From a virus: DNA of 21,522 bases. Below the pieces are notes generated by a model, which was not told the DNA's origin, searched no databases, and worked only from the letters and a program-made list of their open reading frames with translations. The stretch spans positions 1 to 21,522 of IMG/VR virus record IMGVR_UViG_3300032313_000359; one strand, 5' to 3'. Shown here one piece after another: positions 1 to 15,379 of this stretch (its first letter is position 1; each line of letters begins with the position of its first letter). A program made the position numbers and the translations under genes.

Positions 1-3000
1 GGAGATTTAGACCAAATAAAATCAGGTTCGGCAATTGCAAATATTTCACCAAATAGAGGCTTGGTAGTAAATGTACCAACTTCAATAAGTGGTGGTTTAG
101 CAGTTAATGGTAATTCAAATATAACTGGTTCAGTTGTAATAACACAAAACTTAAATGTAGGTGGTAGAATTACATCAACTGAATTACATACAACATTTAT
201 TTCATCATCAGTAATATTTGCATCTGGTTCAAATAAATTTGGAGATAATGTTGTTGATAGACAAGAAATAACTGGTAGCTTATCCGTTAGTGGTAGTATA
301 GGAATTACTGGAAATACACTACCAACCGATGATACTACAAATGAAGTACTTGTTATAAATTTAGCAACAGGTAGAATTGGTAGAAGATTTGCAGCAGCAA
401 CTTCTGGTACATCGGGAACATCTGGTTCTTCTGGAAGTAGTGGTAGTGGTGGTTCTTCTGGTTCATCTGGTAGTGGAGGTAGCTCGGGTACATCTGGAAG
501 TAGTGGTAGTGGTGGTACATCTGGTTCTTCTGGAACTAGGGGTACAAGTGGCTCATCTGGTTCAACGGGTTCTGCTGGAACTTCTGGTAGTGGTGGTTCT
601 TCTGGAACATCTGGTTCTTCTGGAAGTAGTGGTAGCGGAGGAACTTCAGGAACAAGCGGAAGTGGTGGTTCATCTGGTTCTTCTGGAAGCGGAGGAACAT
701 CGGGAACTTCTGGTACGAATGGTTCATCCGGAAGTGGTGGTACATCTGGTTCAAGTGGTAGTGGTGGAAGTAGTGGTAGCGGTGGCACATCAGGAACATC
801 TGGTTCAACGGGTTCGGCTGGTACAACGGGTTCGGCAGGTACAACAGGTTCGGCAGGTACATCTGGTACAACTGGTTCTAGTGGTACTTCTGGATTAACA
901 GGTTCATCTGGTTCTTCTGGTTCGAATGGTTCATCGGGAATAAATGGAACGTCTGGTAGTGGTGGTACAAGTGGTAGTGCTGGTAGTGGTGGTATAAGTG
1001 GAGCTGGTGGTTCATCTGGTACAAGTGGAACGGGTGGTACAAGTGGTACATCAGGAACTTCTGGTTCAACTGGAACTGGAGGTTCATCGGGCTCTTCTGG
1101 TATAGGTGGAGCGGGTGGTACGGGTGGTACATCTGGAAGTGGAGGTACTTCAGGAACTTCTGGAACATCTGGTTCAAGTGGTAGTAGTGGAAGTGGTGGA
1201 AGTAGTGGTTCAACTGGCTCAACCGGTTCAGCTGGAACTGCTGGTTCATCTGGTACTTCTGGTACTTCTGGGTCAACGGGTTCTGCTGGTTCATCCGGTT
1301 CAACGGGAACTTCTGGAAGTGCAGGTACATCTGGTACGACTGGTACTTCTGGAACTGGTGGTACTAGCGGACAGAGTGGTGGAATAAAATATGATTTTTC
1401 AACAACAATAACTGATTCCGATCCTGGTAGTGGTAGAGTTCAATATAATAACGCAACAATTGCATCGGTAACTTTCCTATACATTGATATTTTAGACCAA
1501 AGTGGTAATAACCAATTAGCATGGTTTAATAGTTGGGATGATAGTAATACACCAAATAATAGAGGTACTCTTATACTATCATCAAGAGATAGTGGTACGG
1601 TAAATAACATATTCACAATTACAGGTAACGTAACAAATGCATCTGGATATTTTAAAATACCTGTAACTTATGTTAGTGGTACGATTCCAACTAATAACGC
1701 ACAATTGGTAGTTGGATTTGCACGAACAGGTGATAGTGGTACTTCTGGAACATCTGGCACAACAGGTACAAGCGGTAGTGCTGGTACTTCTGGGTCAGCA
1801 GGAACTTCTGGAACTACGGGTACTTCTGGTTCAGCCGGAACATCTGGGTCTGCTGGAACATCTGGTTCAGCAGGTACATCAGGAACAACAGGAACCTCTG
1901 GAAGTGGAGGTACATCAGGAACAACAGGAACCTCTGGAAGTGGAGGTTCATCAGGAACAACTGGTACATCTGGTAGTGGTGGAACGTCTGGGTCATCTGG
2001 TTCAGCTGGAAGTGGAGGAACTTCTGGAACTAGAGGAACTTCTGGAAGTGGTGGTTCATCTGGAAGTGGGGGCACATCGGGAACTACTGGAAGTGCTGGT
2101 ACATCTGGAAGCGGAGGAACTTCGGGAACTTCTGGTTCGGCTGGTTCATCTGGTAGTGGAGGTACATCCGGTTTATTATCATTAACTGGTACAACTGATA
2201 ATGGTGTAATCACCCTAAATGGAACTGCACCAAACGGAACGGTTGAAAGTAATTTAACTTTCGATGGTACATTATTAACGGTTACTGGTAACGCCACAAT
2301 TACAGGAAATTTAACTGTGAGTGGTACAACAACTACAATTAATACTGAAACAATCCTATTAGCGGATAATATAATAACTCTTAATTCAAACTTCACATCT
2401 GGAGCACCAACTGAAAACGCTGGTATAGAAGTTAGGAGAGGTTCATCATCAACGGTATCATTCTATTGGGATGAAAGTACTGATAGATGGACAGCAGATA
2501 ATACTTTATCAGTAAGTGGTAACGTAGTTCTTAGTGGTACGATAGATACCGGACAAGGAGCAACTGAAGTTTATTTAATGAATCAGAATGTTCGTACAAC
2601 TGATAACGTTCAACATGCAACAATTACAGCAACTAATGGTGTTAGTGTAACCGGAGGAAACCTTTCAGTAAGTGCTGGTAATATAACTATAAGTGGTACA
2701 ATTGATACTGGACAGGGAGCAACTGAAGTTTATTTAATGAATCAGAATGTTCGTACAACCGATGCAGTAACATTCGCAACCGTTAATACTGGGCAAGGGG
2801 CTAACGAATTATACGCAATGGACCAAAACGTAAGAACTACGGATGGTGTAACATTTGCAACCGTTAATACTGGACAAGGTGCTAACGAACTTTATGCGAT
2901 GGACCAAAACGTAAGAACTACGGATGGTGTAACATTTGCTACGGTAAATACTGGACAAGGTGCTAACGAATTGTACGCAATGAATCAAAATGTTCGTACA

Positions 3001-6000
3001 ACTGATAGTGTAACTTTTGCAAATATATCATCGACTGGATATGTTGATGGACAATTTAATAGTGGATTTAGATTAAGAAATGCAGCAAACACAGCAAATA
3101 TTGGTGGATTTACTCGTAGAGGATTATGGGAAGGTAATGCAAATATAGACCCAGCACTATGGGCCGAAACTGGATATGGTCTTTATTTTTATACTAATGG
3201 AAGTGCTACTATAAAAAGTTATATAGATACAAATGGTACAGTATTTGCACTAAACGATTTCAGAGCACCAATATTTTATGATTCCGATAACACTGGATAT
3301 TATATAAATGGAGCAAGTAATTCAAATCTAAATACATTACAAGCATATTCATATCAAGGTAATTCAAACGTAGCTGGTACTGGTAATGCATCATATCATC
3401 CTTCTGGTATTTATTCAACTGGTACAAACTGGTTGTATGGTACAATGTATCTGAATGTAAATTCAATAAATGATGCAGCTGATATTAGATTATATAATTC
3501 ATCATATCATTTCAGAGCAAGATACACCGCAGGTTCTGATATATATCATGCATCTCTTAATTGGTATGGTTTACAATTGGGTAATAATGGAGATAACTTT
3601 ATTATAGCAGGTAGAACAAACGTTGGTGGTAGATTACGATTCTATGTAAATAATACATCGGATTTTACATCAATCAACGGAACGGAGGGTATGCGTTTGG
3701 ATAATGATGGTAGACTATATTCTTATGTAGATACTCGTTCACCATTATTCTACGATAACAATAACACTGGGTATTATGGAGATTTTGCATCAACATCTCG
3801 TTTCAATACAACGATAACTGATACAACATATTTTGGTTCGGATACAAATAAAGGATATGCACAGGGATATGGTACTTACTCATCTGCATTATTTAGGATT
3901 GCATATATGTCATTTGATTGGAATGCAAACTATAACACTTATTCTAATCATGGTATAGCATCTACTGATTTAAACGGTAGTTTTAGTGATTCAATGAGTA
4001 TTAACTCATTCAATGATATTGTTTTAAGAGTAGACTCAAACGATAATAACAATAATTCGTATGTTCGTTTTATGGATAATACCACTGGAAATAACCAATT
4101 TGCATATATTGGTAGAGAAAGTGGAAATTCGATTGCATATTTTGATAATAGAGTATATGGTGCAATATTTTACGATTCCAATGATAGTGGATATTACATA
4201 GACCCTAACTCAACATCAATGACCGCCCTAAGAATGAGAGGTGGTGCATTATTTGGACCAAATAACACTTGGGGAGCATATCTTTTAGTTGGTGGTGATG
4301 GTAGAAACGGATATATTGATAGTGCGTTTGCATCGGTAGCAACTACAAATGGTAACTTACACTTAGATGCAGGTAGTGGATATGGATTGTATCTAAACCA
4401 CTATGATGGTAGTGTAATATACTTTGGTGCTGGTAATAATAGTAACTGGGGTGAATTTAGTGGTGGTATTTTCTACGCATATAATCAGATGCGTTCACCA
4501 ATATTCTATGATTATAACGATACTGGATATTATGTAGACCCTAATGCTACTTCAAACATCCGTTATCTTAAAATGAATACAACGGGGACTTCATCGGCAA
4601 CCAGAGCACTTACAATTAAGCAAGATGGTTTTGGTGAGTACAACTATGGTTCATACCCTGGAGCTTGGACATCCGCATTACAAATCCAAAACAATGATAA
4701 TACCAAAATGATTTGGATATCACCATTGGATAGTTCAAACTGGGCAAACTTTAGAGTAAATGGTTCAACCGCTGGATTACACTTTAATATGGGTGGTGGT
4801 ATAAACGCAAGTGGTACTACAACTTGGGAAATTTATAGTTCTTATGTTTATAGTGGATATCCTATATATGGTACTATATTCTATGATGCTAACAATAGTG
4901 CATATTATGTAGACCCTAATGGATATAGTGAATTTGGTAATAGTGGTCTTGTTGCAACATTTACAAAATTAGGAACAGGTCCTAATAGTAGAGCAATTCA
5001 ATTTGCAAACAATCAGGGTGATAACTCTTGGGGTATTGTTGCTGAATTTAGAGTTAATGGTTCTCCTGGTACGGATAGACCTTCGATATTATTCTCTAAC
5101 GGATTTGATAGTCAAACATGGTCTTGTGGATATGGATATGCAGATTCTGGATACTTTAGAGTTAATTATGACCACGGACACAGAAATGGTTCATGGGGTT
5201 CAACCGCTTTTTATATTGATAGAGGTAGTAACTCATACTCAAATGGTTCATCTCGTGCACCAATTTTTTATGATTTAAACAATACTGCATTCTTTTGTGA
5301 CCCTGCTGGCCGCTCTCGTTTATCAACAATCGATTATGGAGATGGTAGTTATTATTGGAGAGGTGGTAGTTGGGGATGGAGACATCAAACTCCTTCTGGA
5401 TATATTGAATTTGGACCTGCAAATACATCACATGCTCACATTTATACTGATAGAAGTAACTTCTATTTCAACGTATATGAAATGTACCTTAATGGGTATA
5501 GAGTAGCAATGTACAACTATTGGGTTGGAAATATGTACTTAGGAAGTGGTGGTGATTTTTACGCAACTATTTTCTATGATACAAATAATACTGGATATTA
5601 TTGTGACCCTGCTTCAACAAACCGATTAAATTTTGTAAACGCTAATAACATTTACATCAACGCTGGTCACATGTTATATAGTGACAGTGGTGGTTGGACA
5701 GGTGAATATAATAAAATACAATGGCATAGTTCCCACATGTATTTCCAAAAAATGCAAGAGGGATATTGGATATTCAGAAGACCTTCTGGTTCAGAACCGC
5801 ATCAATTTGCAGTAGATGGTAACCATTACACTGCTTATTTAGGTTGGTTATCTAACTGGGCTAACCAAAACGTTAGAACTGATGCCGGACCTACATTCCA
5901 AGAGGTTTATGTAAACGGATGGTTTAGAAATAATACATCTGGGCATGGTTTATATAACCAAAATAGAGGTATGCACTGGTATTCTAATAACGGATATTGG

Positions 6001-7425
6001 AAATCAGCTGGTGGTGGATATGGATATGGTGGAGTTGTAATGTACAATAACTACGAATCTGATTTAAGAGGATACTCTGGATACTGGGATGGTAGTGGAT
6101 TTGGTATGTTGAATAGTTCTGGTAACTGGCAGATTCGTATTGAATATGGTAACGCTCACATGGAGTTGTATCGTATTACATATATGAACGATGCTAGAGC
6201 ATACATTTATTATGATAGAAATGATACCGGTTACTATATGGACCCGAATGCTCGTTCTCAATGGTTGGGATTAGAAGATAGAGGTAAAGGTAACATATCA
6301 ATCACAGGTAAATCAAACTGGAGAAGACCGCAAGATTATACTGGAGATAGAAACTATTGGACAGGTGCAATGGGTTGGGGTACTACGGACTTCAACTGGG
6401 TAATGGATTGGGGTGGTGGTGATATTGATACTTGGTCAAATCCGGCTAACCAACCTCCTGGCACTTCGCATTGGGTGGGTGTTCAATCATATCACTATGT
6501 AAACTCTTATAATAGTGGATATGGATGGCAATTAGTTGGTGGACCTGTTGATAGATTATGGTTTAGAAACTCTTGGTCTGGTAATACTGGTTGGAAAGCA
6601 CAAATTGACTCTAATAACAGAGCAGAATATTGTTTACCAACATACGATTTTACTACAACATCAAGATTATACTTCTTATACAATAGAGGATATTATGCTA
6701 CACAAACCGATTCGGCAATGTGTCAACCATACTCTACTGGTAATAACGGAGCATTCATGTCATTCCATAAATCTGGATACTACGCTATTAACTTAGGTTT
6801 GGATGGTGATAACCTTATACGTTGGGGTGGTTGGTCTTCAAGATGGCAGAGATATTATTTGAACGATGATACATTGGGTACTCCTTATGTACTCCGTTCA
6901 AACTTTGATAACTATGGTGGTGGTGGTGTTTGGGTATCTGATGATGGTGACCTTTGTGATTTGAACGATGGCTATTTAGCATTAAGAGCTTCGTATGGTT
7001 TGAGAATTCACACTGGTAATAGAGGTGGTGGTGCTACAATTGCATTAAGATATGATGGACAGATTATAGCATCAAACAACATCATTGCGTATGGTTCTCC
7101 TTCGGATAGACGATTAAAAGATAATGTAATACCTTTAGAAAATTCATTAGAAAAAATAATGAAAATGAGAGGGGTTGAGTTTGATTGGAGAGAAGGTACT
7201 GATGAATACGAAACAACAGGATTAAGACATGATATTGGATTTATCGCTCAAGAAGTTGAAGATATAGTTCCTGATTTGGTTAGGGAGGGTGCTGATGGAT
7301 ATTTGGCAATTAGAGATAGAGGTATTCCAGCATTACTATTGGAAGCTATTAAAGAACTGAAAAATGAATTAGATGAAACTAAAAAAGAATTAAAAAATTT
7401 AAAAGAAAAAATAGGTTTTGAGTAA
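1..7425 (+). CDS. Giant tail fibre / adhesin with collagen-like blocks and S74 self-cleaving chaperone (5' partial)
   Basis: The frame is open from base 1, so the gene begins upstream of the window; 2474 codons are visible. Order in visible residues: an N-terminal beta-rich segment; Gly-X-Y block 1 (about 136-459); a globular insert (about 460-576); Gly-X-Y block 2 (about 577-723); a segment of the GNLTVSGTTTTINTET type common in phage fibres; repeats with QNVRTTD (about 850-1010); a long Asn/Tyr/Gly-rich shaft with eight IFYDxNxTGYY motifs; and from residue 2368 SDRRLKDN, the start of an intramolecular chaperone (Peptidase S74). In that family cleavage occurs just before the Ser, using a Ser/Lys dyad, and the C-terminal part is released after trimerisation. 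The protein ends in a Lys/Glu-rich coiled coil (LLEAIKELKNELDETKKELK). Its likely role is host recognition at the tail tip. It is followed after 36 bases by a small unknown gene. The domain calls are strong; the receptor is unknown. Confidence 0.93.
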   Translation, partial: GDLDQIKSGSAIANISPNRGLVVNVPTSISGGLAVNGNSNITGSVVITQNLNVGGRITSTELHTTFISSSVIFASGSNKFGDNVVDRQEITGSLSVSGSIGITGNTLPTDDTTNEVLVINLATGRIGRRFAAATSGTSGTSGSSGSSGSGGSSGSSGSGGSSGTSGSSGSGGTSGSSGTRGTSGSSGSTGSAGTSGSGGSSGTSGSSGSSGSGGTSGTSGSGGSSGSSGSGGTSGTSGTNGSSGSGGTSGSSGSGGSSGSGGTSGTSGSTGSAGTTGSAGTTGSAGTSGTTGSSGTSGLTGSSGSSGSNGSSGINGTSGSGGTSGSAGSGGISGAGGSSGTSGTGGTSGTSGTSGSTGTGGSSGSSGIGGAGGTGGTSGSGGTSGTSGTSGSSGSSGSGGSSGSTGSTGSAGTAGSSGTSGTSGSTGSAGSSGSTGTSGSAGTSGTTGTSGTGGTSGQSGGIKYDFSTTITDSDPGSGRVQYNNATIASVTFLYIDILDQSGNNQLAWFNSWDDSNTPNNRGTLILSSRDSGTVNNIFTITGNVTNASGYFKIPVTYVSGTIPTNNAQLVVGFARTGDSGTSGTSGTTGTSGSAGTSGSAGTSGTTGTSGSAGTSGSAGTSGSAGTSGTTGTSGSGGTSGTTGTSGSGGSSGTTGTSGSGGTSGSSGSAGSGGTSGTRGTSGSGGSSGSGGTSGTTGSAGTSGSGGTSGTSGSAGSSGSGGTSGLLSLTGTTDNGVITLNGTAPNGTVESNLTFDGTLLTVTGNATITGNLTVSGTTTTINTETILLADNIITLNSNFTSGAPTENAGIEVRRGSSSTVSFYWDESTDRWTADNTLSVSGNVVLSGTIDTGQGATEVYLMNQNVRTTDNVQHATITATNGVSVTGGNLSVSAGNITISGTIDTGQGATEVYLMNQNVRTTDAVTFATVNTGQGANELYAMDQNVRTTDGVTFATVNTGQGANELYAMDQNVRTTDGVTFATVNTGQGANELYAMNQNVRTTDSVTFANISSTGYVDGQFNSGFRLRNAANTANIGGFTRRGLWEGNANIDPALWAETGYGLYFYTNGSATIKSYIDTNGTVFALNDFRAPIFYDSDNTGYYINGASNSNLNTLQAYSYQGNSNVAGTGNASYHPSGIYSTGTNWLYGTMYLNVNSINDAADIRLYNSSYHFRARYTAGSDIYHASLNWYGLQLGNNGDNFIIAGRTNVGGRLRFYVNNTSDFTSINGTEGMRLDNDGRLYSYVDTRSPLFYDNNNTGYYGDFASTSRFNTTITDTTYFGSDTNKGYAQGYGTYSSALFRIAYMSFDWNANYNTYSNHGIASTDLNGSFSDSMSINSFNDIVLRVDSNDNNNNSYVRFMDNTTGNNQFAYIGRESGNSIAYFDNRVYGAIFYDSNDSGYYIDPNSTSMTALRMRGGALFGPNNTWGAYLLVGGDGRNGYIDSAFASVATTNGNLHLDAGSGYGLYLNHYDGSVIYFGAGNNSNWGEFSGGIFYAYNQMRSPIFYDYNDTGYYVDPNATSNIRYLKMNTTGTSSATRALTIKQDGFGEYNYGSYPGAWTSALQIQNNDNTKMIWISPLDSSNWANFRVNGSTAGLHFNMGGGINASGTTTWEIYSSYVYSGYPIYGTIFYDANNSAYYVDPNGYSEFGNSGLVATFTKLGTGPNSRAIQFANNQGDNSWGIVAEFRVNGSPGTDRPSILFSNGFDSQTWSCGYGYADSGYFRVNYDHGHRNGSWGSTAFYIDRGSNSYSNGSSRAPIFYDLNNTAFFCDPAGRSRLSTIDYGDGSYYWRGGSWGWRHQTPSGYIEFGPANTSHAHIYTDRSNFYFNVYEMYLNGYRVAMYNYWVGNMYLGSGGDFYATIFYDTNNTGYYCDPASTNRLNFVNANNIYINAGHMLYSDSGGWTGEYNKIQWHSSHMYFQKMQEGYWIFRRPSGSEPHQFAVDGNHYTAYLGWLSNWANQNVRTDAGPTFQEVYVNGWFRNNTSGHGLYNQNRGMHWYSNNGYWKSAGGGYGYGGVVMYNNYESDLRGYSGYWDGSGFGMLNSSGNWQIRIEYGNAHMELYRITYMNDARAYIYYDRNDTGYYMDPNARSQWLGLEDRGKGNISITGKSNWRRPQDYTGDRNYWTGAMGWGTTDFNWVMDWGGGDIDTWSNPANQPPGTSHWVGVQSYHYVNSYNSGYGWQLVGGPVDRLWFRNSWSGNTGWKAQIDSNNRAEYCLPTYDFTTTSRLYFLYNRGYYATQTDSAMCQPYSTGNNGAFMSFHKSGYYAINLGLDGDNLIRWGGWSSRWQRYYLNDDTLGTPYVLRSNFDNYGGGGVWVSDDGDLCDLNDGYLALRASYGLRIHTGNRGGGATIALRYDGQIIASNNIIAYGSPSDRRLKDNVIPLENSLEKIMKMRGVEFDWREGTDEYETTGLRHDIGFIAQEVEDIVPDLVREGADGYLAIRDRGIPALLLEAIKELKNELDETKKELKNLKEKIGFE
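406..1377 (+). repeat. Collagen-like Gly-X-Y block 1 in the fibre gene
   Basis: This stretch encodes 108 uninterrupted Gly-X-Y triplets made almost only of Gly, Ser, Thr and Ala (GTS, GSS, GSG, GSA, GTT). Rare Asn, Ile, Leu, Arg and Gln occur, and there is no proline. Synonymous codons (tct, tca, tcg, agt, agc) are mixed, so the protein repeat is nearly perfect while the DNA repeat is scrambled. It probably forms a flexible or triple-helical stalk in a trimeric fibre. Confidence 0.95.
1729..2169 (+). repeat. Collagen-like Gly-X-Y block 2 in the fibre gene
   Basis: A second run of 49 Gly-X-Y triplets has the same Ser/Thr/Ala/Gly composition. It is separated from block 1 by a globular insert of about 117 residues (1378-1728) with beta-strand character. 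A near-identical 25-base unit (ggaacaacaggaacctctgg and flanks) repeats around 1881-1947, which shows recent local duplication. Confidence 0.94.
2548..3030 (+). repeat. 27-residue (81-bp) QNVRTTD repeats in the fibre gene
   Basis: Five copies of a unit reading TGQGA(T/N)E(V/L)Y(L/A)M(N/D)QNVRTTD begin at 2548, 2707, 2788, 2869 and 2950. The last four are in exact 81-base tandem. Copies at 2548 and 2707 are almost identical in DNA, as are those at 2788 and 2869, so these are recent duplications. A diverged copy (NQNVRTDAGPTF) lies near 5863. Confidence 0.9.
3271..6246 (+). repeat. Eight spaced IFYDxNxTGYYxDP shaft repeats in the fibre gene
   Basis: The motif (R/G)(S/A)(P/T)IFYD-x-N-(D/N)-T-G-Y-Y-x-D-P begins at 3271, 3745, 4165, 4501, 4876, 5263, 5569 and 6205. 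Spacing is 102-212 residues. Each copy closes a module rich in Asn, Tyr, Trp and Gly. The same motif is known from long tail fibres of T4-like phages. The array probably forms a stacked-module shaft ahead of the S74 domain. Confidence 0.85.
7102..7425 (+). other. S74 intramolecular chaperone region of the fibre protein
   Basis: The region opens with SDRRLKDN at visible residue 2368, the hallmark of Peptidase S74 domains. The conserved Ser (codon at 7102) and the Lys of RLK are the family's catalytic dyad. It continues through GFIAQEVEDIVPDLV and ALLLEAIKEL, typical of the helical chaperone, and ends in a coiled coil. The mature fibre would end at about residue 2367 of the visible part, and this roughly 107-residue piece would be released. 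Confidence 0.9.
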
Positions 7426-11125: not shown

Positions 11126-11623
11126 ATGGCAGATATTCTATCCTTCGATAAGATGTTCTATACGAACTTCGAACCAAAAATGAAAAACCGTTATATAATG
11201 GAATTGACCGATACGGCAATCCCATCATTTACGGTAAGTGCGGCTAACCGCCCAACAATTCAGTTTGAAACTGTAAAAATAGACCACATCAACGTTTATA
11301 GAAAGTTGAAAGGTAAAGGTGAGTGGCAAGATTTGGAGATTACTTTGTATGACCCAATCGTACCATCAGCAGCACAAGCAGTAATGGAATGGGTTCGTTT
11401 ATCACACGAATCTATTACTGGTAGAGATGGATATGCAGAAATGTATAAAAAAGATATTGATTTTTACCTATTAGGACCTGTTGGTGATAAGATTGAACAA
11501 TGGAAATTGAAAGGTGCATTTATCTCTCAAGCAAACTTTGGAGATTTAGCATATAGTACAACAAATGAGCCTGTAACAATTACATTAACATTGACTTACG
11601 ATTACGCAGTGTTAGAATTCTAA
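11126..11623 (+). CDS. Tail tube protein (T4 gp19-like), 165 aa
   Basis: This protein forms the stacked inner tube through which DNA passes. Length matches T4 gp19 (163 aa). Motifs typical of T4-like tube proteins are the N-terminal FDKMFYTNFEPKMKNRYIM, the strand pair VKIDHINVYRKLKGKGEWQDLEITLYDP, the helix AAQAVMEWVRLSHESITGRDGYA, and the C-terminal strands EQWKLKGAFISQANFGDLAY and PVTITLTLTYDYAVLEF. An AGGG eight bases before the ATG may act as a Shine-Dalgarno site. It lies directly after the sheath gene and is closed by two tandem hairpins, as expected for a highly expressed monocistronic message. Confidence 0.95.
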   Translation: MADILSFDKMFYTNFEPKMKNRYIMELTDTAIPSFTVSAANRPTIQFETVKIDHINVYRKLKGKGEWQDLEITLYDPIVPSAAQAVMEWVRLSHESITGRDGYAEMYKKDIDFYLLGPVGDKIEQWKLKGAFISQANFGDLAYSTTNEPVTITLTLTYDYAVLEF

Positions 11624-11630
11624 AAAATAT

Positions 11631-11653
11631 TCCTTACGGATGCTACCGAAGGA
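11631..11653 (+). other. Hairpin directly after the tube gene
   Basis: TCCTT-a-CGG pairs with CCG-AAGGA (8 bp with one bulged A) around the loop ATGCTA. It lies 7 bases after the tube stop codon and one base before the terminator hairpin. It may protect the 3' end of the tube message. Confidence 0.6.
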
Positions 11654-11654
11654 C

Positions 11655-11690
11655 AACCCTCATCAGAAATGGTGGGGGTTTTTTATTTTT
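11655..11690 (+). terminator. Intrinsic terminator after the tube gene
   Basis: AACCCTCATC pairs with GGTGGGGGTT (two G.U pairs) around the loop AGAAAT. It is followed by a long T run (ttttttattttt). This is a textbook Rho-independent terminator and the most G+C-rich hairpin in the window. Confidence 0.88.
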
Positions 11691-11708
11691 AAAAATTTTA
11701 ATTTAATG

Positions 11709-11742: not shown

Positions 11743-12504
11743 ATGAGCGAAAAGCAATATGATTTTCCAACGGAAGTGTTGGATTTGCCATCGGAAGGTA
11801 AGGTATATCCAAAAGATAATCCATTATCATCTGGAAGAATTACAATAAAATTAATGACAGCAAAGGAAGAAGATATCCTTTCTTCTACAAACCTTATCAA
11901 AAAAGGTGTTGTGTTAGATAAACTATTCGAATCTATTATAGTAGATAAAATTAATCCAAACGATATTATAATTGGTGATAAGAACGCAATCCTTTTAGCA
12001 ACAAGAGTATTAGGTTATGGACCTGAGTATGATTTTAGCTTCTATTCAGCTAAATTAGGAGAAAGTGTTCAAGTAAAATCAGATTTAACACAAGTTAAAA
12101 CTAAAGAAGTTGATATGTCACTTTTTGATAATAAAAATGAATTAGAATATGTAACACCTTATGGAAAAAATAAAATTGTATTTAAATTACTAACACATGG
12201 CGATGAAAGAGAAATTGATAAAGAAATCGAAGCTCTTAAGAAATTAAATAAAGATTTATCATCTGATATTACAACTCGTTTAAGATATATGATTAAATCG
12301 GTGGATGGTAACTCTGAAGTTGGTCATATTACTAGATTTGTTAATAATATGAGAGCGATGGATAGCAGAGCATTTAGAGACTATGTTAAAAATATTTCAC
12401 CGGATATGGATATGAAATTACAATATACCCATATAGATGGTGAGGTGGAGGAGGCGCCTATCTCTTTGGGAGTAAACTTTTTTTGGCCTACCACCGAGTC
12501 ATAG
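11743..12504 (+). CDS. T4 gp26-like baseplate/tail-assembly protein, 253 aa
   Basis: This belongs to the T4 base plate protein family (gp26 type). Diagnostic stretches are VLDLPSEGKVYPKDNPLSSG, ITIKLMTAKEEDILSSTNLI, VLDKLFESIIVDKINPND and IGDKNAILLATRVLGYGPEY, with the C-terminal FFWP. In T4, gp26 is needed for hub assembly. Its position just before the tape measure is that of a tail-assembly chaperone, which binds the tape measure before tube growth. The stop at 12502 is TAG, while every other gene here ends in TAA. Beyond it, related sequence continues in the +1 frame, so part of the product is probably extended by frameshifting. A T7 run (12478-12484) lies near the end. Confidence 0.88.
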   Translation: MSEKQYDFPTEVLDLPSEGKVYPKDNPLSSGRITIKLMTAKEEDILSSTNLIKKGVVLDKLFESIIVDKINPNDIIIGDKNAILLATRVLGYGPEYDFSFYSAKLGESVQVKSDLTQVKTKEVDMSLFDNKNELEYVTPYGKNKIVFKLLTHGDEREIDKEIEALKKLNKDLSSDITTRLRYMIKSVDGNSEVGHITRFVNNMRAMDSRAFRDYVKNISPDMDMKLQYTHIDGEVEEAPISLGVNFFWPTTES

Positions 12505-12694
12505 TATAGATTTACACACTCAAATTTTTGATATGGTACACTATGGTAATGGATTTACTGTTATGGAATTGTACCAAATGCCAACCAGACTAAGAATGTT
12601 TTATTATAATAAATTAGCTGATGCAAAGAAAAAAGAAAATGATGAGGTAGAAAAGGGAAATAAATCAGCATCAAAAGTTAGGGTTAGACGATAA
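12485..12694 (+). CDS. Frameshifted (+1) C-terminal extension, gp51-like assembly chaperone segment
   Basis: In the +1 frame, open from 12476, the reading is SIDLHTQIFDMVHYGNGF, TVMELYQMPTRLRMFYYNKL and a Lys/Glu-rich tail ending KVRVRR at a TAA (12692-12694). The pattern 'IFxMVxYGxGFTxxELYxMPxxLRxFYYxKL' resembles, from memory, T4 gp51-type hub-assembly proteins and the second half of frameshifted tail chaperones. The first ATG (12533) falls inside the conserved part, so independent initiation would cut it. The more likely route is a +1 (or -2) shift within 12478-12504, at the T7 run or at the TAG stop. The coordinate given is the earliest +1 codon after the T run; the true junction is not known. 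Confidence 0.6.
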   Translation, partial: GLPPSHSIDLHTQIFDMVHYGNGFTVMELYQMPTRLRMFYYNKLADAKKKENDEVEKGNKSASKVRVRR

Positions 12695-12745: not shown

Positions 12746-12982
12746 ATGAAAAAGTATAAAATATCAGAATCCAAATTAAATGAATTTTGGGGTTGGTTTG
12801 GTAAAAAGAAACCACAACCATTACAAAAAGTAATAGATAATGATCCTGTATTGAAAAAAATTGATAAAGAAATGAAAGATTTGGTTGATAGCCAACTTCC
12901 AATTTTATTAAGATTAAAAAAACAACACCCTGACCTTTGGAAAATTGCAGTAGAAAAAGGATTAGTGGGCCCTAATATATAA
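12746..12982 (+). CDS. Hypothetical protein, 78 aa, upstream of the tape measure
   Basis: A small basic protein with Trp/Phe-rich N-terminal ISESKLNEFWGWFGKKKPQP followed by two predicted helices (VIDNDPVLKKIDKEMKDLVD and ILLRLKKQHPDLWKIAVEKG). There is no signal peptide. I do not recognise the family with confidence. It begins the tape-measure unit and ends 6 bases before that gene, so it is probably translationally linked to it. A small assembly factor or minor virion protein is possible, from position only. Confidence 0.75.
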   Translation: MKKYKISESKLNEFWGWFGKKKPQPLQKVIDNDPVLKKIDKEMKDLVDSQLPILLRLKKQHPDLWKIAVEKGLVGPNI

Positions 12983-12988
12983 TTCTAA

Positions 12989-15379
12989 ATGGCTGAAGAT
13001 AACGAAAAACAATTAGATGCTCTTAATAAAATAGAAGATGCTCAAAAACGTATTGATGAGCTTTTGAAAAGACAAGCCGTGTCTAATGAAAAAAATGCAA
13101 AAAAACTTCAAAAACAAATTGATAGTGAGCATGAGCTGATTAAATTAAAAAAACAAGAGCTTACTGAAATTGAAAAGGTAACAAAAGAATTAGAGTATCA
13201 AAAGAAAAAACAAGAAGAAATAGTTGATACTTTAAGTATTTTTGATAAGTTAGAAAAAGATATACAACACGGATTAAAAGGTAATAATAAAGAAATAACC
13301 GCTTTTTCAAGTATAAGCTTTCAAATAGCAGCAAATAAAAAAAAGCAATTAACCGCAACAGATGAAGAGCGAGTAGCTTTACAAAAAATAATTGACCAAC
13401 AAGAAGCTTCTGCAAATAGCCTTGTTAAAATGGTAAATCATCATCATAAAAAGAATGAAGCGGTTTCTATTGAAGAATCTGTAAGAAAAAGAATGAAAGG
13501 TGCCAGCGAGGATGAAATACAAAGTATGATTATTCTCGAAAAGTATCAGGAAAAAGTAGTTAAAAAACATGAAAGAATACATGAATTACAGCATCAAATA
13601 GCACACCAAGCACATCATCTACCAGAAGGTATAAGAAATGCTGTAACTGGTGCTATGGATTTGGGTAAAGCTGTTATGAAAGCTGGTTTTGCATTTGGTG
13701 GAATGATGTTAGTGGTAGCCGCTTTAGGAGCAGGTTTGCATGCATTTATGGAATTAGATGCAGCTGCAGAAGATTACAGAAAAACTACCGGTTTTACTGC
13801 TAAAATGACTAAAGAGATAGATGCAACTGTTCACCATACTGTAGTTGCTTATAGAAAATTAGGCGTTACTGCAAAAGATGCTTATGATGTAATGAATGAA
13901 ATGGCGAACGCACAAAGTGATTTGTTTACCTTTTCTGAAAAAACTGTTAAAGCACTTTCTATACTAAACACAAGAATGGGTATTGCGGCGGGAGATAGCG
14001 CAAAAGTATCATCCATGTTTGAGCAAATCGGAGGATTGAGTGAAGAAACAGCAGCTAATGCAACCTTAACAGCTGCATCACTTGCATCCGAAGCCGGTAT
14101 ATCGGCTAAAGAATTATTTCAGGACATGGCAAAAAGTTCCGGAGTATTATCCAGTCACATGAAGGGTAATGTTCAATTGTTTGTTGCTCAAGCAGCAAAA
14201 GCTAAAATGCTTGGAACTACTCTACAAGATATGGCCAAAACATCTGAACAACTTTTAAATTTTGAAAGTAGTATTGAAGAAGAATTAACGGCAGCAACTT
14301 TTGTAGGAGGACAATTTAATTTAAATAGAGCTAGAGCACTTGCGTATGAAGGAAAAATAGCAGATGCAAATGATGAAATATTAAATCAGATTCAAAGAAG
14401 TGGAGATTTTAGAAAGCAAGATTATTTTACACAACAGCAATTAGCAAAGGCAGCGGGAAAATCCGTTGAAGATATTGTAAGAGAATTGGGAGTTAGAGAT
14501 AAATTGGGTAAATTAAGTGGTGACCAATTAGATAAAGCAAATAAATTAGTAGAAAGTGGTGTAGATATAAGTAAGTTAAGTGATGAGGACCTTAAAAAGA
14601 AAGCAGAGGCTTTGGCAAAAGAACAAAAGATAGCAGGAGTAATGACGGATATTCAAGATAGAATTGCTGGTATTGTTGAATCCGTTGGTGGTAATTTAAC
14701 TCCTATATTTGATGTATTGGGTGGTGTTTTAATTACAATATTAACTGTAATTGGAGAGATTGGTAAGGGATTTAAATTTATGCAAGAAAACGCTGCAGCT
14801 ATGGCAATTGGTATTGGTGCAATAGTTGTTGCATTTGGGTTTTTAATTGCAGCAAAAATTAAAGCCCTTATGCTATCAAGACAACAGGCAGCTGCAACAC
14901 AAAAGGAAGCTATGGTTGAAGGACAAAAAGCTGGTTTTAGTATTTGGGGTTCTTTAGCAAAAATTCCATTTGGTGTGGGTTTAGCACTTGCAGCCGCAAC
15001 AGTTGGATTGATGTTTGCTGGTATTAGTTCATTATTTTCAAAAGGAGATGACGTATTTTCACCTGGTAGTGGTAGTGGTGGATATGGTAGTAGAACTCTA
15101 ATGGGACCTGAAGGTGCGATACAACTTAATAATAAAGACTCGGTAATAGCTGGTACTGATTTATTTTCAAAGTCAACACAATCACAACCAACTCAAACGG
15201 TATCACCTATGGCATCATCTAACAATAGTATGATAAACGCATTGATAAGCGAATTTAGAGGTGTTAGAGCGGATATGGCAAGTGGTAAAATAGGAGTTTA
15301 TATGGATAATGATAAGGTTACTGCAAATGTGACTAGAACTGTGGATAATAGTACTAGAAATAATTTTGCATTACAATAA
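12989..15379 (+). CDS. Tape measure protein (functional counterpart of T4 gp29), 796 aa
   Basis: This protein sets tail length and is packed in the tube. Residues 1-210 are long charged heptad-like helices (coiled coil). A hydrophobic segment follows near 232-255 (FAFGGMMLVVAALGAGLHAF), then a helical Ala-rich body. More hydrophobic segments lie near 577-595, 602-628 (IGIGAIVVAFGFLIAAKI) and 659-682. After about residue 687 come DDVFSPGSGSGGYGSRTLMG and EGAIQLNNKDSVIAGTDLF, a C-terminal signature I know from tape measures of similar phages. At about 0.15 nm per residue, 796 aa would correspond to a tail near 119 nm. It lies after the assembly chaperones and before baseplate genes, the standard place. 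Confidence 0.9.
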   Translation: MAEDNEKQLDALNKIEDAQKRIDELLKRQAVSNEKNAKKLQKQIDSEHELIKLKKQELTEIEKVTKELEYQKKKQEEIVDTLSIFDKLEKDIQHGLKGNNKEITAFSSISFQIAANKKKQLTATDEERVALQKIIDQQEASANSLVKMVNHHHKKNEAVSIEESVRKRMKGASEDEIQSMIILEKYQEKVVKKHERIHELQHQIAHQAHHLPEGIRNAVTGAMDLGKAVMKAGFAFGGMMLVVAALGAGLHAFMELDAAAEDYRKTTGFTAKMTKEIDATVHHTVVAYRKLGVTAKDAYDVMNEMANAQSDLFTFSEKTVKALSILNTRMGIAAGDSAKVSSMFEQIGGLSEETAANATLTAASLASEAGISAKELFQDMAKSSGVLSSHMKGNVQLFVAQAAKAKMLGTTLQDMAKTSEQLLNFESSIEEELTAATFVGGQFNLNRARALAYEGKIADANDEILNQIQRSGDFRKQDYFTQQQLAKAAGKSVEDIVRELGVRDKLGKLSGDQLDKANKLVESGVDISKLSDEDLKKKAEALAKEQKIAGVMTDIQDRIAGIVESVGGNLTPIFDVLGGVLITILTVIGEIGKGFKFMQENAAAMAIGIGAIVVAFGFLIAAKIKALMLSRQQAAATQKEAMVEGQKAGFSIWGSLAKIPFGVGLALAAATVGLMFAGISSLFSKGDDVFSPGSGSGGYGSRTLMGPEGAIQLNNKDSVIAGTDLFSKSTQSQPTQTVSPMASSNNSMINALISEFRGVRADMASGKIGVYMDNDKVTANVTRTVDNSTRNNFALQ

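What the first reader, a model, noticed from the sequence alone, without database searches (positions are those of the whole stretch)
12476..12694. Probable programmed +1 frameshift joining gp26-like and gp51-like tail chaperones
Seen: the gp26-like frame keeps its FFWP end and stops at TAG (12502), while protein-like sequence continues in the +1 frame, with conserved-looking residues before its first ATG (12533). A T7 run (12478-12484) precedes the stop. TAG is used only here; the other 13 protein frames end in TAA. Known: many tailed phages make a longer tail-assembly chaperone by frameshifting just before the tape measure gene. Inference: the same trick operates on a T4-type gp26/gp51 pair, which are separate genes in T4.
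Basis: partly seen in the sequence, partly recalled or inferred. Interest (0 to 1): 0.7.

Follow-up and report, generated by a model that had tools for sequence, protein, structure and literature searches.

The report
+1 frameshift in T4-like tail chaperone
Two overlapping phage tail-assembly reading frames are almost certainly joined by a programmed +1 ribosomal slip on a run of seven Ts, conserved in over a hundred related viruses together with an upstream GGAGG signal whose position fits no known rule.

Summary
The finding holds. The gp26-like ORF (11743-12504) stops at TAG, and a second conserved ORF continues in the +1 frame to 12694. Among 102 distinct related loci, 101 keep TTTTTTT at this spot and one keeps TTCTTTT. 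The stop codon and its position vary. The +1 frame is open in every case; the -1 frame closes after a median of 7 codons. The +1 segment is under purifying selection before its first ATG, and no start codon is conserved. [quoted passage not shown]

Frameshifting in T4-like TACs is already published in outline; a citing paper calls it -1. New here: the +1 direction; a direction code (the base before the T run is almost never T here, but is T in all eight -1 jumbo phages); and a GGAGG 26 nt upstream, outside known internal Shine-Dalgarno spacings. A GGAGG-N26-T7-NNCCT scan of IMG/VR hit TAC-N genes in 77 of 80 loci. "gp51-like" is only partly right: homology of the +1 segment to gp51's 48-residue tail is suggestive, not shown. 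No product has been detected.

The parts
11743..12504 (+). TAC-N: gp26/PF12322-type tail assembly chaperone, 253 aa, 0-frame product ending FFWPTTES-TAG
   Evidence: PF12322 E=3.7e-5 in the window, best 5.2e-22 and 36 of 44 relatives; phrog_150 1.4e-8; AF2 pLDDT 90, best BFVD hits are T4-type baseplate hub proteins
12447..12454 (+). GGAGG element (two overlapping copies, 12447-12451 and 12450-12454), 26 and 23 nt before the T run; putative long-range stimulator
   Evidence: GGAGG at this place in 46/54 representatives under 80% identity; codon -11 ends in G 47/54 against 5.3 expected, codon -10 49/54 against 7.6
12475..12477 (+). AAC codon before the T run; its wobble base is almost never T in the clade
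   Evidence: T in 1/102 against 67.9 expected from codon use; 1/54 representatives against 35.0
12478..12486 (+). Shift site TTT TTT TGG: P-site UUU (12481-12483) re-pairs one base on (12482-12484), next codon GGC (12485-12487)
   Evidence: T7 in 101/102 loci, TTCTTTT in the other; next codon TGG 62, TAC 35, TAT 5
12502..12504 (+). 0-frame stop (TAG); identity and position vary between relatives
   Evidence: TAA 44, TAG 40, TGA 18; 1-4 codons after FFxP
12485..12694 (+). TAC-C: +1-frame segment (69 codons then TAA), giving a 316-aa TAC-NC when joined
   Evidence: open in all loci; A5/A8 alignments with invariant Y, P, R; AF2 three helices, pLDDT 83
12533..12535 (+). First ATG of the +1 frame, the rival start; no SD and lies inside conserved sequence
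   Evidence: ATG at this codon in 53 of 99 loci; SD-like sequence before an in-frame start in 1 of 102
12989..15379 (+). Tape measure protein, 796 aa
   Evidence: BLASTP 3e-20 to the protein annotated tail tape measure in Flavobacterium phage immuto
11126..11623 (+). Tail tube protein (gp19 type)
   Evidence: phrog_4542 2.4e-27; 43% identical to the same-position immuto protein
12746..12982 (+). Small ORF (78 aa) between TAC-C and the tape measure gene, function unknown
   Evidence: no family match

Best explanation
This is a G/GT-type pair of tail assembly chaperones in a T4-like contractile-tailed phage. Most ribosomes read the gp26-type gene to its stop and make TAC-N (253 aa). A minority reach UUU UUU UGG with tRNA-Phe in the P site. 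That tRNA slips one base forward onto an identical UUU, and decoding resumes at GGC. The product is TAC-NC (316 aa), TAC-N carrying a three-helix TAC-C. By analogy with lambda G/GT, TAC-N would coat the adjacent tape measure protein and TAC-C would recruit tail tube subunits. Shown from sequence: overlapping coding frames, the conserved shift site, absence of a conserved start, selection in the +1 frame, and gene order. Inferred: that the shift happens and how often, that it is +1 rather than -2, that the GGAGG 26 nt upstream stimulates it, and the chaperone roles.
For: T7 conserved at 101/102 loci down to 48% TAC-N identity while stop type and position vary, which places the shift at the T run and not at the stop. 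Stops in the +1 frame just before the T run in many loci put the shift after that point. The +1 frame is open in every locus and the -1 frame is closed. Purifying selection acts in the +1 frame before any conserved start. The same +1 arrangement occurs in isolates: Mel-JY01 (T7), immuto (CTT TGG), SP-15, LIS04 and GXN1. All fit a P-site slip on UUU-U, UUU-C or CUU-U; the last is the RF2 shift codon, with UUU_U as its minority form (PMC5009743). L103, L133-L147, immuto and GXN1 lack a long T run, which disfavours polymerase slippage and a -2 slip. In L143 and L148 no UUU codon is left at the site, and there the second segment is in another frame with its own ATG. A pattern-only scan hit TAC genes in 77 of 80 loci. 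The tape measure gene lies just downstream.
Against: No protein, ribosome-profiling or reporter evidence. The 0-frame A-site codon UGG is not rare (8.4 per 1000) and GGC in the new frame is rarer (2.6 per 1000), so no starved codon is evident. No conserved RNA structure was found. In Yersinia yopN, mutating a proposed UUU-UGG site did not stop formation of the hybrid (PMC3789692), so the hexamer alone is not proof. LIS04 must slip at the first Phe codon to fit the rule.
Confidence: 0.88

Rival explanations
1. Separate gene: TAC-C is initiated on its own, at ATG 12533 or by coupling to the TAC-N stop.
For: A start codon exists in the +1 frame of every complete locus, and ATG stands at the window's place in 53/99. 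Related L143, L148 and L050 do have an ATG next to the stop.
Against: The start is not conserved in position or kind, only 1/102 loci has an SD-like sequence before a candidate start, and conserved residues under selection lie upstream of it. It does not explain T7 conservation.
Confidence: 0.05
3. RNA polymerase slippage on T7 makes a minority of mRNAs with one U less or two more.
For: A homopolymer run is strictly conserved in the window clade.
Against: T7 is short for this, and relatives with T3 or T4 interrupted by C keep the +1 arrangement.
Confidence: 0.06
4. Assembly or sequencing indel: the two parts are one frame in reality.
For: A homopolymer run is an error-prone place.
Against: 102 distinct loci from many samples plus sequenced isolates all show it, and relatives lacking the run show the same frame offset.
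Confidence: 0.005

Closest known systems
Lambda G/GT and the general tail-assembly-chaperone frameshift (Xu, Hendrix, Duda 2004; review PMC5009743)
   Same: Short and long chaperone from one locus just before the tape measure gene; [quoted passage not shown] long form is the short form plus a C-terminal domain.
   Different: Lambda shifts -1. Here it is +1 on tandem Phe codons, in a protein of the T4 gp26/PF12322 family.
T4-like TACs (Vladimirov, Gautam, Davidson 2022, Virology 566:9; known here from citing papers, and from memory of its abstract)
   Same: Same protein family. T4 keeps a short (gp26) and a long (gp51) form as two genes; other T4-like groups are said to frameshift.
   Different: A citing paper describes the T4-like poly-T sites as -1 (PMC12846349). 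The window clade shifts +1, guards the base before the run and carries GGAGG. Whether the original paper already lists +1 cases could not be checked.
RF2 (prfB) +1 frameshift
   Same: P-site tRNA slips one base on CUU_U, minority UUU_U; immuto uses CUU_U.
   Different: RF2 needs a UGA in the A site and an SD 3 nt upstream. Here the A site is UGG or UAY and GGAGG is 26 nt upstream.
Yersinia yopN-tyeA proposed +1 at UUU-UGG (PMC3789692)
   Same: Same hexamer proposed for +1.
   Different: There the site could be destroyed without losing the hybrid, and it is not a tail chaperone.
UUU-pyrimidine +1 shift-prone sites in E. coli (Schwartz and Curran 1997, cited in PMC3789692; content from memory)
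   Same: Same P-site behaviour of UUU before U or C.
   Different: Those were error or reporter sites; here it would be a conserved programmed use.

Membership tests
G/GT-type frameshifted tail assembly chaperone | Two overlapping ORFs between tail tube and tape measure genes | tested here: met
   Tail tube 11126-11623, tape measure 12989-15379; one small ORF intervenes
G/GT-type frameshifted tail assembly chaperone | Second ORF open through the first stop, with no conserved start of its own | tested here: met
   102 loci, starts scattered
G/GT-type frameshifted tail assembly chaperone | Conserved slippery sequence before the stop | tested here: met
   T7 101/102
G/GT-type frameshifted tail assembly chaperone | Both products made at a set ratio; bind tape measure and tube | not testable with these tools
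   Needs proteomics and interaction assays
G/GT-type frameshifted tail assembly chaperone | Fold of a known tail assembly chaperone | tested here: inconclusive
   Best PDB hit is the HK97 tail assembly chaperone 2ob9, but E=0.45
T4 gp26 (PF12322 T4_baseplate) | PF12322 domain in TAC-N | tested here: met
   Window 24.0 bits, just under the 24.5 cut-off; 36 of 44 relatives match, best 5.2e-22; BFVD hits to T4-type hub proteins
T4 gp51 | +1 segment homologous to the C-terminal 48 aa of gp51 | tested here: inconclusive
   hhalign places it collinearly at the gp51 C-terminus but P=0.044; phrog_634 in 2/47 members, best E 0.008; an HMM of TAC-C does not rank gp51 above decoys
Canonical -1 X_XXY_YYZ site | Downstream ORF in the -1 frame and T before the tandem Phe codons | tested here: not met
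   -1 frame median 7 codons; base before the run is T in 1/102
RF2-type +1 site | P-site NUU able to re-pair at +1 | tested here: met
   UUU_U, UUU_C or CUU_U
RF2-type +1 site | Stop codon in the A site and SD 3 nt upstream | tested here: not met
   A site UGG or UAY; GGAGG 26 nt upstream
Transcriptional slippage site | Long homopolymer required wherever the frame relation exists | tested here: not met
   L103, L133-L147, immuto, GXN1 lack it

The most novel reading that the evidence does not exclude
The GGAGG 26 nt before the T run is a new kind of frameshift stimulator: a Shine-Dalgarno-like sequence acting at a spacing outside both known classes (3 nt for +1, 9-14 nt for -1). The hosts are probably Bacteroidota, whose ribosomes normally hide the anti-SD behind bS21, so the element could make the TAC-N to TAC-NC ratio depend on ribosomes with an exposed 16S tail, for example lacking bS21 or carrying a phage bS21.
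Probability: 0.2. Interest if true: 0.82.

Novelty: new variant of a known kind. Interest (0 to 1): 0.58.

Why it matters
It adds a +1, UUU-based version to the widespread tail-chaperone frameshift. It also gives a natural series within one protein family: +1, -1, separate gene, duplicated gene. The direction appears to be set by one wobble base before the same tandem Phe codons, which can be tested directly. The conserved GGAGG at an unexpected distance is a new and testable stimulator candidate, in hosts that seem not to use Shine-Dalgarno pairing. Practically, annotation misses the long product in Flavobacterium phage immuto, Microcystis phage Mel-JY01, SP-15 and LIS04, and the PRFect filter (which requires the +1 codon to be commoner than the 0-frame codon) would probably reject the window's site.

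Tried and rejected
Stop-codon recoding of TAG: frame 0 meets another stop (TGA) a few codons after the TAG, and relatives use all three stops. Canonical -1 shift: -1 frame closed. RNA stimulator: mean z-scores -0.4 to -0.8 and an empty RNAalifold consensus for -48..+60 and +12..+100. Pairing of GGAGG with CCUNCC after the T run: looked at by eye, no covariation seen, and NCC is explained by double coding. Internal initiation from GGAGG: no start at normal spacing in the loci read by eye, and +1-frame stops lie before the T run in many loci. TAC-C against T4 gp51: suggestive only. TAC-C found no fold match below E=0.28, although Leptospira phage LE4 gives hits to both TAC-N (A0A343LED6) and TAC-C (A0A343LED7). 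The key papers (Vladimirov 2022; Schwartz and Curran 1997) are not held and were not read.

Full report
Observation. All elements described are present at the stated coordinates. The gp26-like ORF 11743-12504 ends ...GVNFFWPTTES with TAG at 12502. Its codons run AAC TTT TTT TGG CCT, the T7 being 12478-12484. The +1 frame is open from the run to TAA at 12694. The T7 is the only one on the + strand of the 21.5-kb window, against 18 runs of A7. TAG is used only here, but that is incidental: relatives use TAA 44, TAG 40 and TGA 18 times.

Related loci. A protein search of IMG/VR gave 44 loci and an alignment search 80 more. After removing duplicates, 102 distinct loci, the window included, could be read across the junction. 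TAC-N identity to the window falls to 48%. In 101 of 102 the two Phe codons are TTT TTT and the next codon begins with T (TGG 62, TAC 35, TAT 5), so T7 is kept; L103 has TTC TTT TAC. Elsewhere in these genes TTT makes up 81% of Phe codons. In 54 representatives below 80% identity, codon 1 is TTT in 54/54 against 42.4 expected, reached in none of 200,000 simulations. The stop lies 1-4 codons after FFxP and is of all three kinds, so the shift happens at the run and not at the stop. Stops in the +1 frame directly before the run in many loci exclude an earlier shift.

Second segment. In the +1 frame it is 64-101 aa in every complete locus; the -1 frame closes after a median of 7 codons. The first possible start codon is not conserved: ATG, TTG or GTG at many different codons, the commonest (ATG at codon 16) in 53 of 99. 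Only one locus has an SD-like sequence before an in-frame start. For the codons between the 0-frame stop and that ATG, pN/pS is 0.50 in the +1 frame, against 1.88 and 0.95 in the other two (simple counts at high divergence, so a direction and not a precise value). AlphaFold gives TAC-N a confident fold (pLDDT 90) and TAC-C three helices (pLDDT 83).

Identity of the proteins. TAC-N belongs with T4 gp26: PF12322 in 36 of 44 members, best 5.2e-22, phrog_150 'baseplate hub', and BFVD matches to T4-type baseplate hub proteins. The best PDB match is the HK97 tail assembly chaperone 2ob9, but at E=0.45. The 796-aa protein downstream aligns at 3e-20 with the protein annotated as tape measure in Flavobacterium phage immuto. 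T4 gp26 and gp51 both match PF12322 along their length, gp51 having 48 further residues, and they lie on opposite strands. T4 therefore carries a short and a long form as two genes, as PRFect's authors report from Vladimirov et al. 2022. The +1 segment matches the gp51 tail in position, but homology stays unproven.

Wider family. The +1 relation also holds in Mel-JY01 (T7), immuto (TTT CTT TGG), LR756508 (TTT CTA), SP-15, LIS04 and GXN1, L133-L147 (TTC TTT TGG) and L149-L150 (T7). All allow a P-site slip UUU to UUU or UUC, or CUU to UUU; the last is the RF2 shift, with UUU_U a minority form (PMC5009743). By contrast eight jumbo T4-like phages (121Q, RaK2, PA5oct, XacN1, RAS14, Atu_ph07, Phosso, Vibrio 2.275.O) have the second segment in the -1 frame behind T_TTT_TTC or T_TTT_TTT. 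L143 and L148 have no UUU left at the site, and L050 has a TAATG overlap; in these three the second segment has its own ATG next to the stop.

Direction code. In the window clade the base before the T run is C 65, G 34, A 2, T 1. Codon use would give T in 67.9 of 102; in representatives it is 1 of 54 against 35.0 expected, a count as low in none of 200,000 simulations. In the eight -1 phages that base is T in all (read). A T there would create T_TTT_TTT, the -1 heptamer. The simplest reading is that the +1 clade is selected against the wrong-way slip; this is an inference, not a test.

GGAGG. A second constraint lies at -31 to -27 from the run: GGAGG in 89 of 102 loci at exactly that place. 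Codon -11 ends in G in 47/54 representatives against 5.3 expected whatever its amino acid, and codon -10 in 49/54 against 7.6, neither reached in 200,000 simulations; most control codons are near expectation, and two (-25 and -5) show far smaller excesses. These simulations treat representatives as independent, which they are not, so the numbers overstate the significance, but the amino acids around the element vary while the bases do not. It is also in Mel-JY01 (32 nt before the run), immuto (25), LR756508 (26) and L133-L140 (23), but not in SP-15, LIS04, GXN1, L149, L150, nor at such a distance in the -1 phages. A scan of IMG/VR with GGAGG-N26-T7-NNCCT alone listed 80 loci; 77 are in frame in a TAC-N gene and 76 of these have TAC-C in the +1 frame, the last being cut by the contig end. 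The spacing is outside the 3 nt known for +1 and the 9-14 nt known for -1 stimulators (PMC5009743 section 36). No conserved RNA structure was found. Genes of the window mostly lack SD sequences (2 of 11 starts), as expected for a Bacteroidota host, where the anti-SD is hidden by bS21 (PMC9976891); the host itself was not identified. One clade member (L061, 274 kb) encodes bS21. The role of GGAGG is unexplained; L148 keeps it although its frameshift seems lost.

Rivals. Independent initiation, a -2 slip, polymerase slippage and assembly error were each tested against the relatives and are unlikely; the loci without a long T run are the main evidence against the middle two. No product has been observed, so efficiency and even occurrence remain inferences, though strong ones.

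Novelty. Frameshifting in T4-like tail chaperones is published in outline, and a citing paper describes the poly-T sites as -1 (PMC12846349). The +1 direction in this family, the guarded base and the GGAGG were not found in the papers searched here; the original paper could not be read. I therefore call it a new variant of a known kind.

Noticed in passing
window 12447-12454: GGAGG conserved 26 nt before the T run at synonymous level, outside known internal-SD spacings; role unexplained.
   Followed up: partly
L143 and L148 (after TAC-N stop), L050: Relatives in which TAC-C appears as a separate gene with an ATG at or next to the TAC-N stop; in L143 and L148 the UUU codons are gone. Possible natural loss of the frameshift.
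   Followed up: partly
L154-L159, L161, L162 (XacN1, Atu_ph07, RAS14, 121Q, PA5oct, Vibrio 2.275.O, Phosso, RaK2): The same family uses T_TTT_TTY with the second segment in the -1 frame; in some records (e.g. PA5oct, RaK2) the segment has no annotated gene.
   Followed up: partly
window 11637-11695: G+C-rich inverted repeat and T run between tail tube and TAC-N genes, terminator-like by eye; SP-15 has an annotated terminator at the same place.
   Followed up: no
L061 contig (IMGVR_UViG_3300034104_003795), 120216-120359: A 274-kb relative encodes ribosomal protein bS21.
   Followed up: no
window 1-7425: Very long tail-fibre-like ORF with collagen-like GSSGTSG repeats and a C-terminus resembling the S74 self-cleaving chaperone domain (by eye).
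   Followed up: no
BFVD A0A343LED6 and A0A343LED7 (Leptospira phage LE4): Consecutive accessions match the TAC-N and TAC-C models respectively, suggesting adjacent TAC genes in a Leptospira phage.
   Followed up: no
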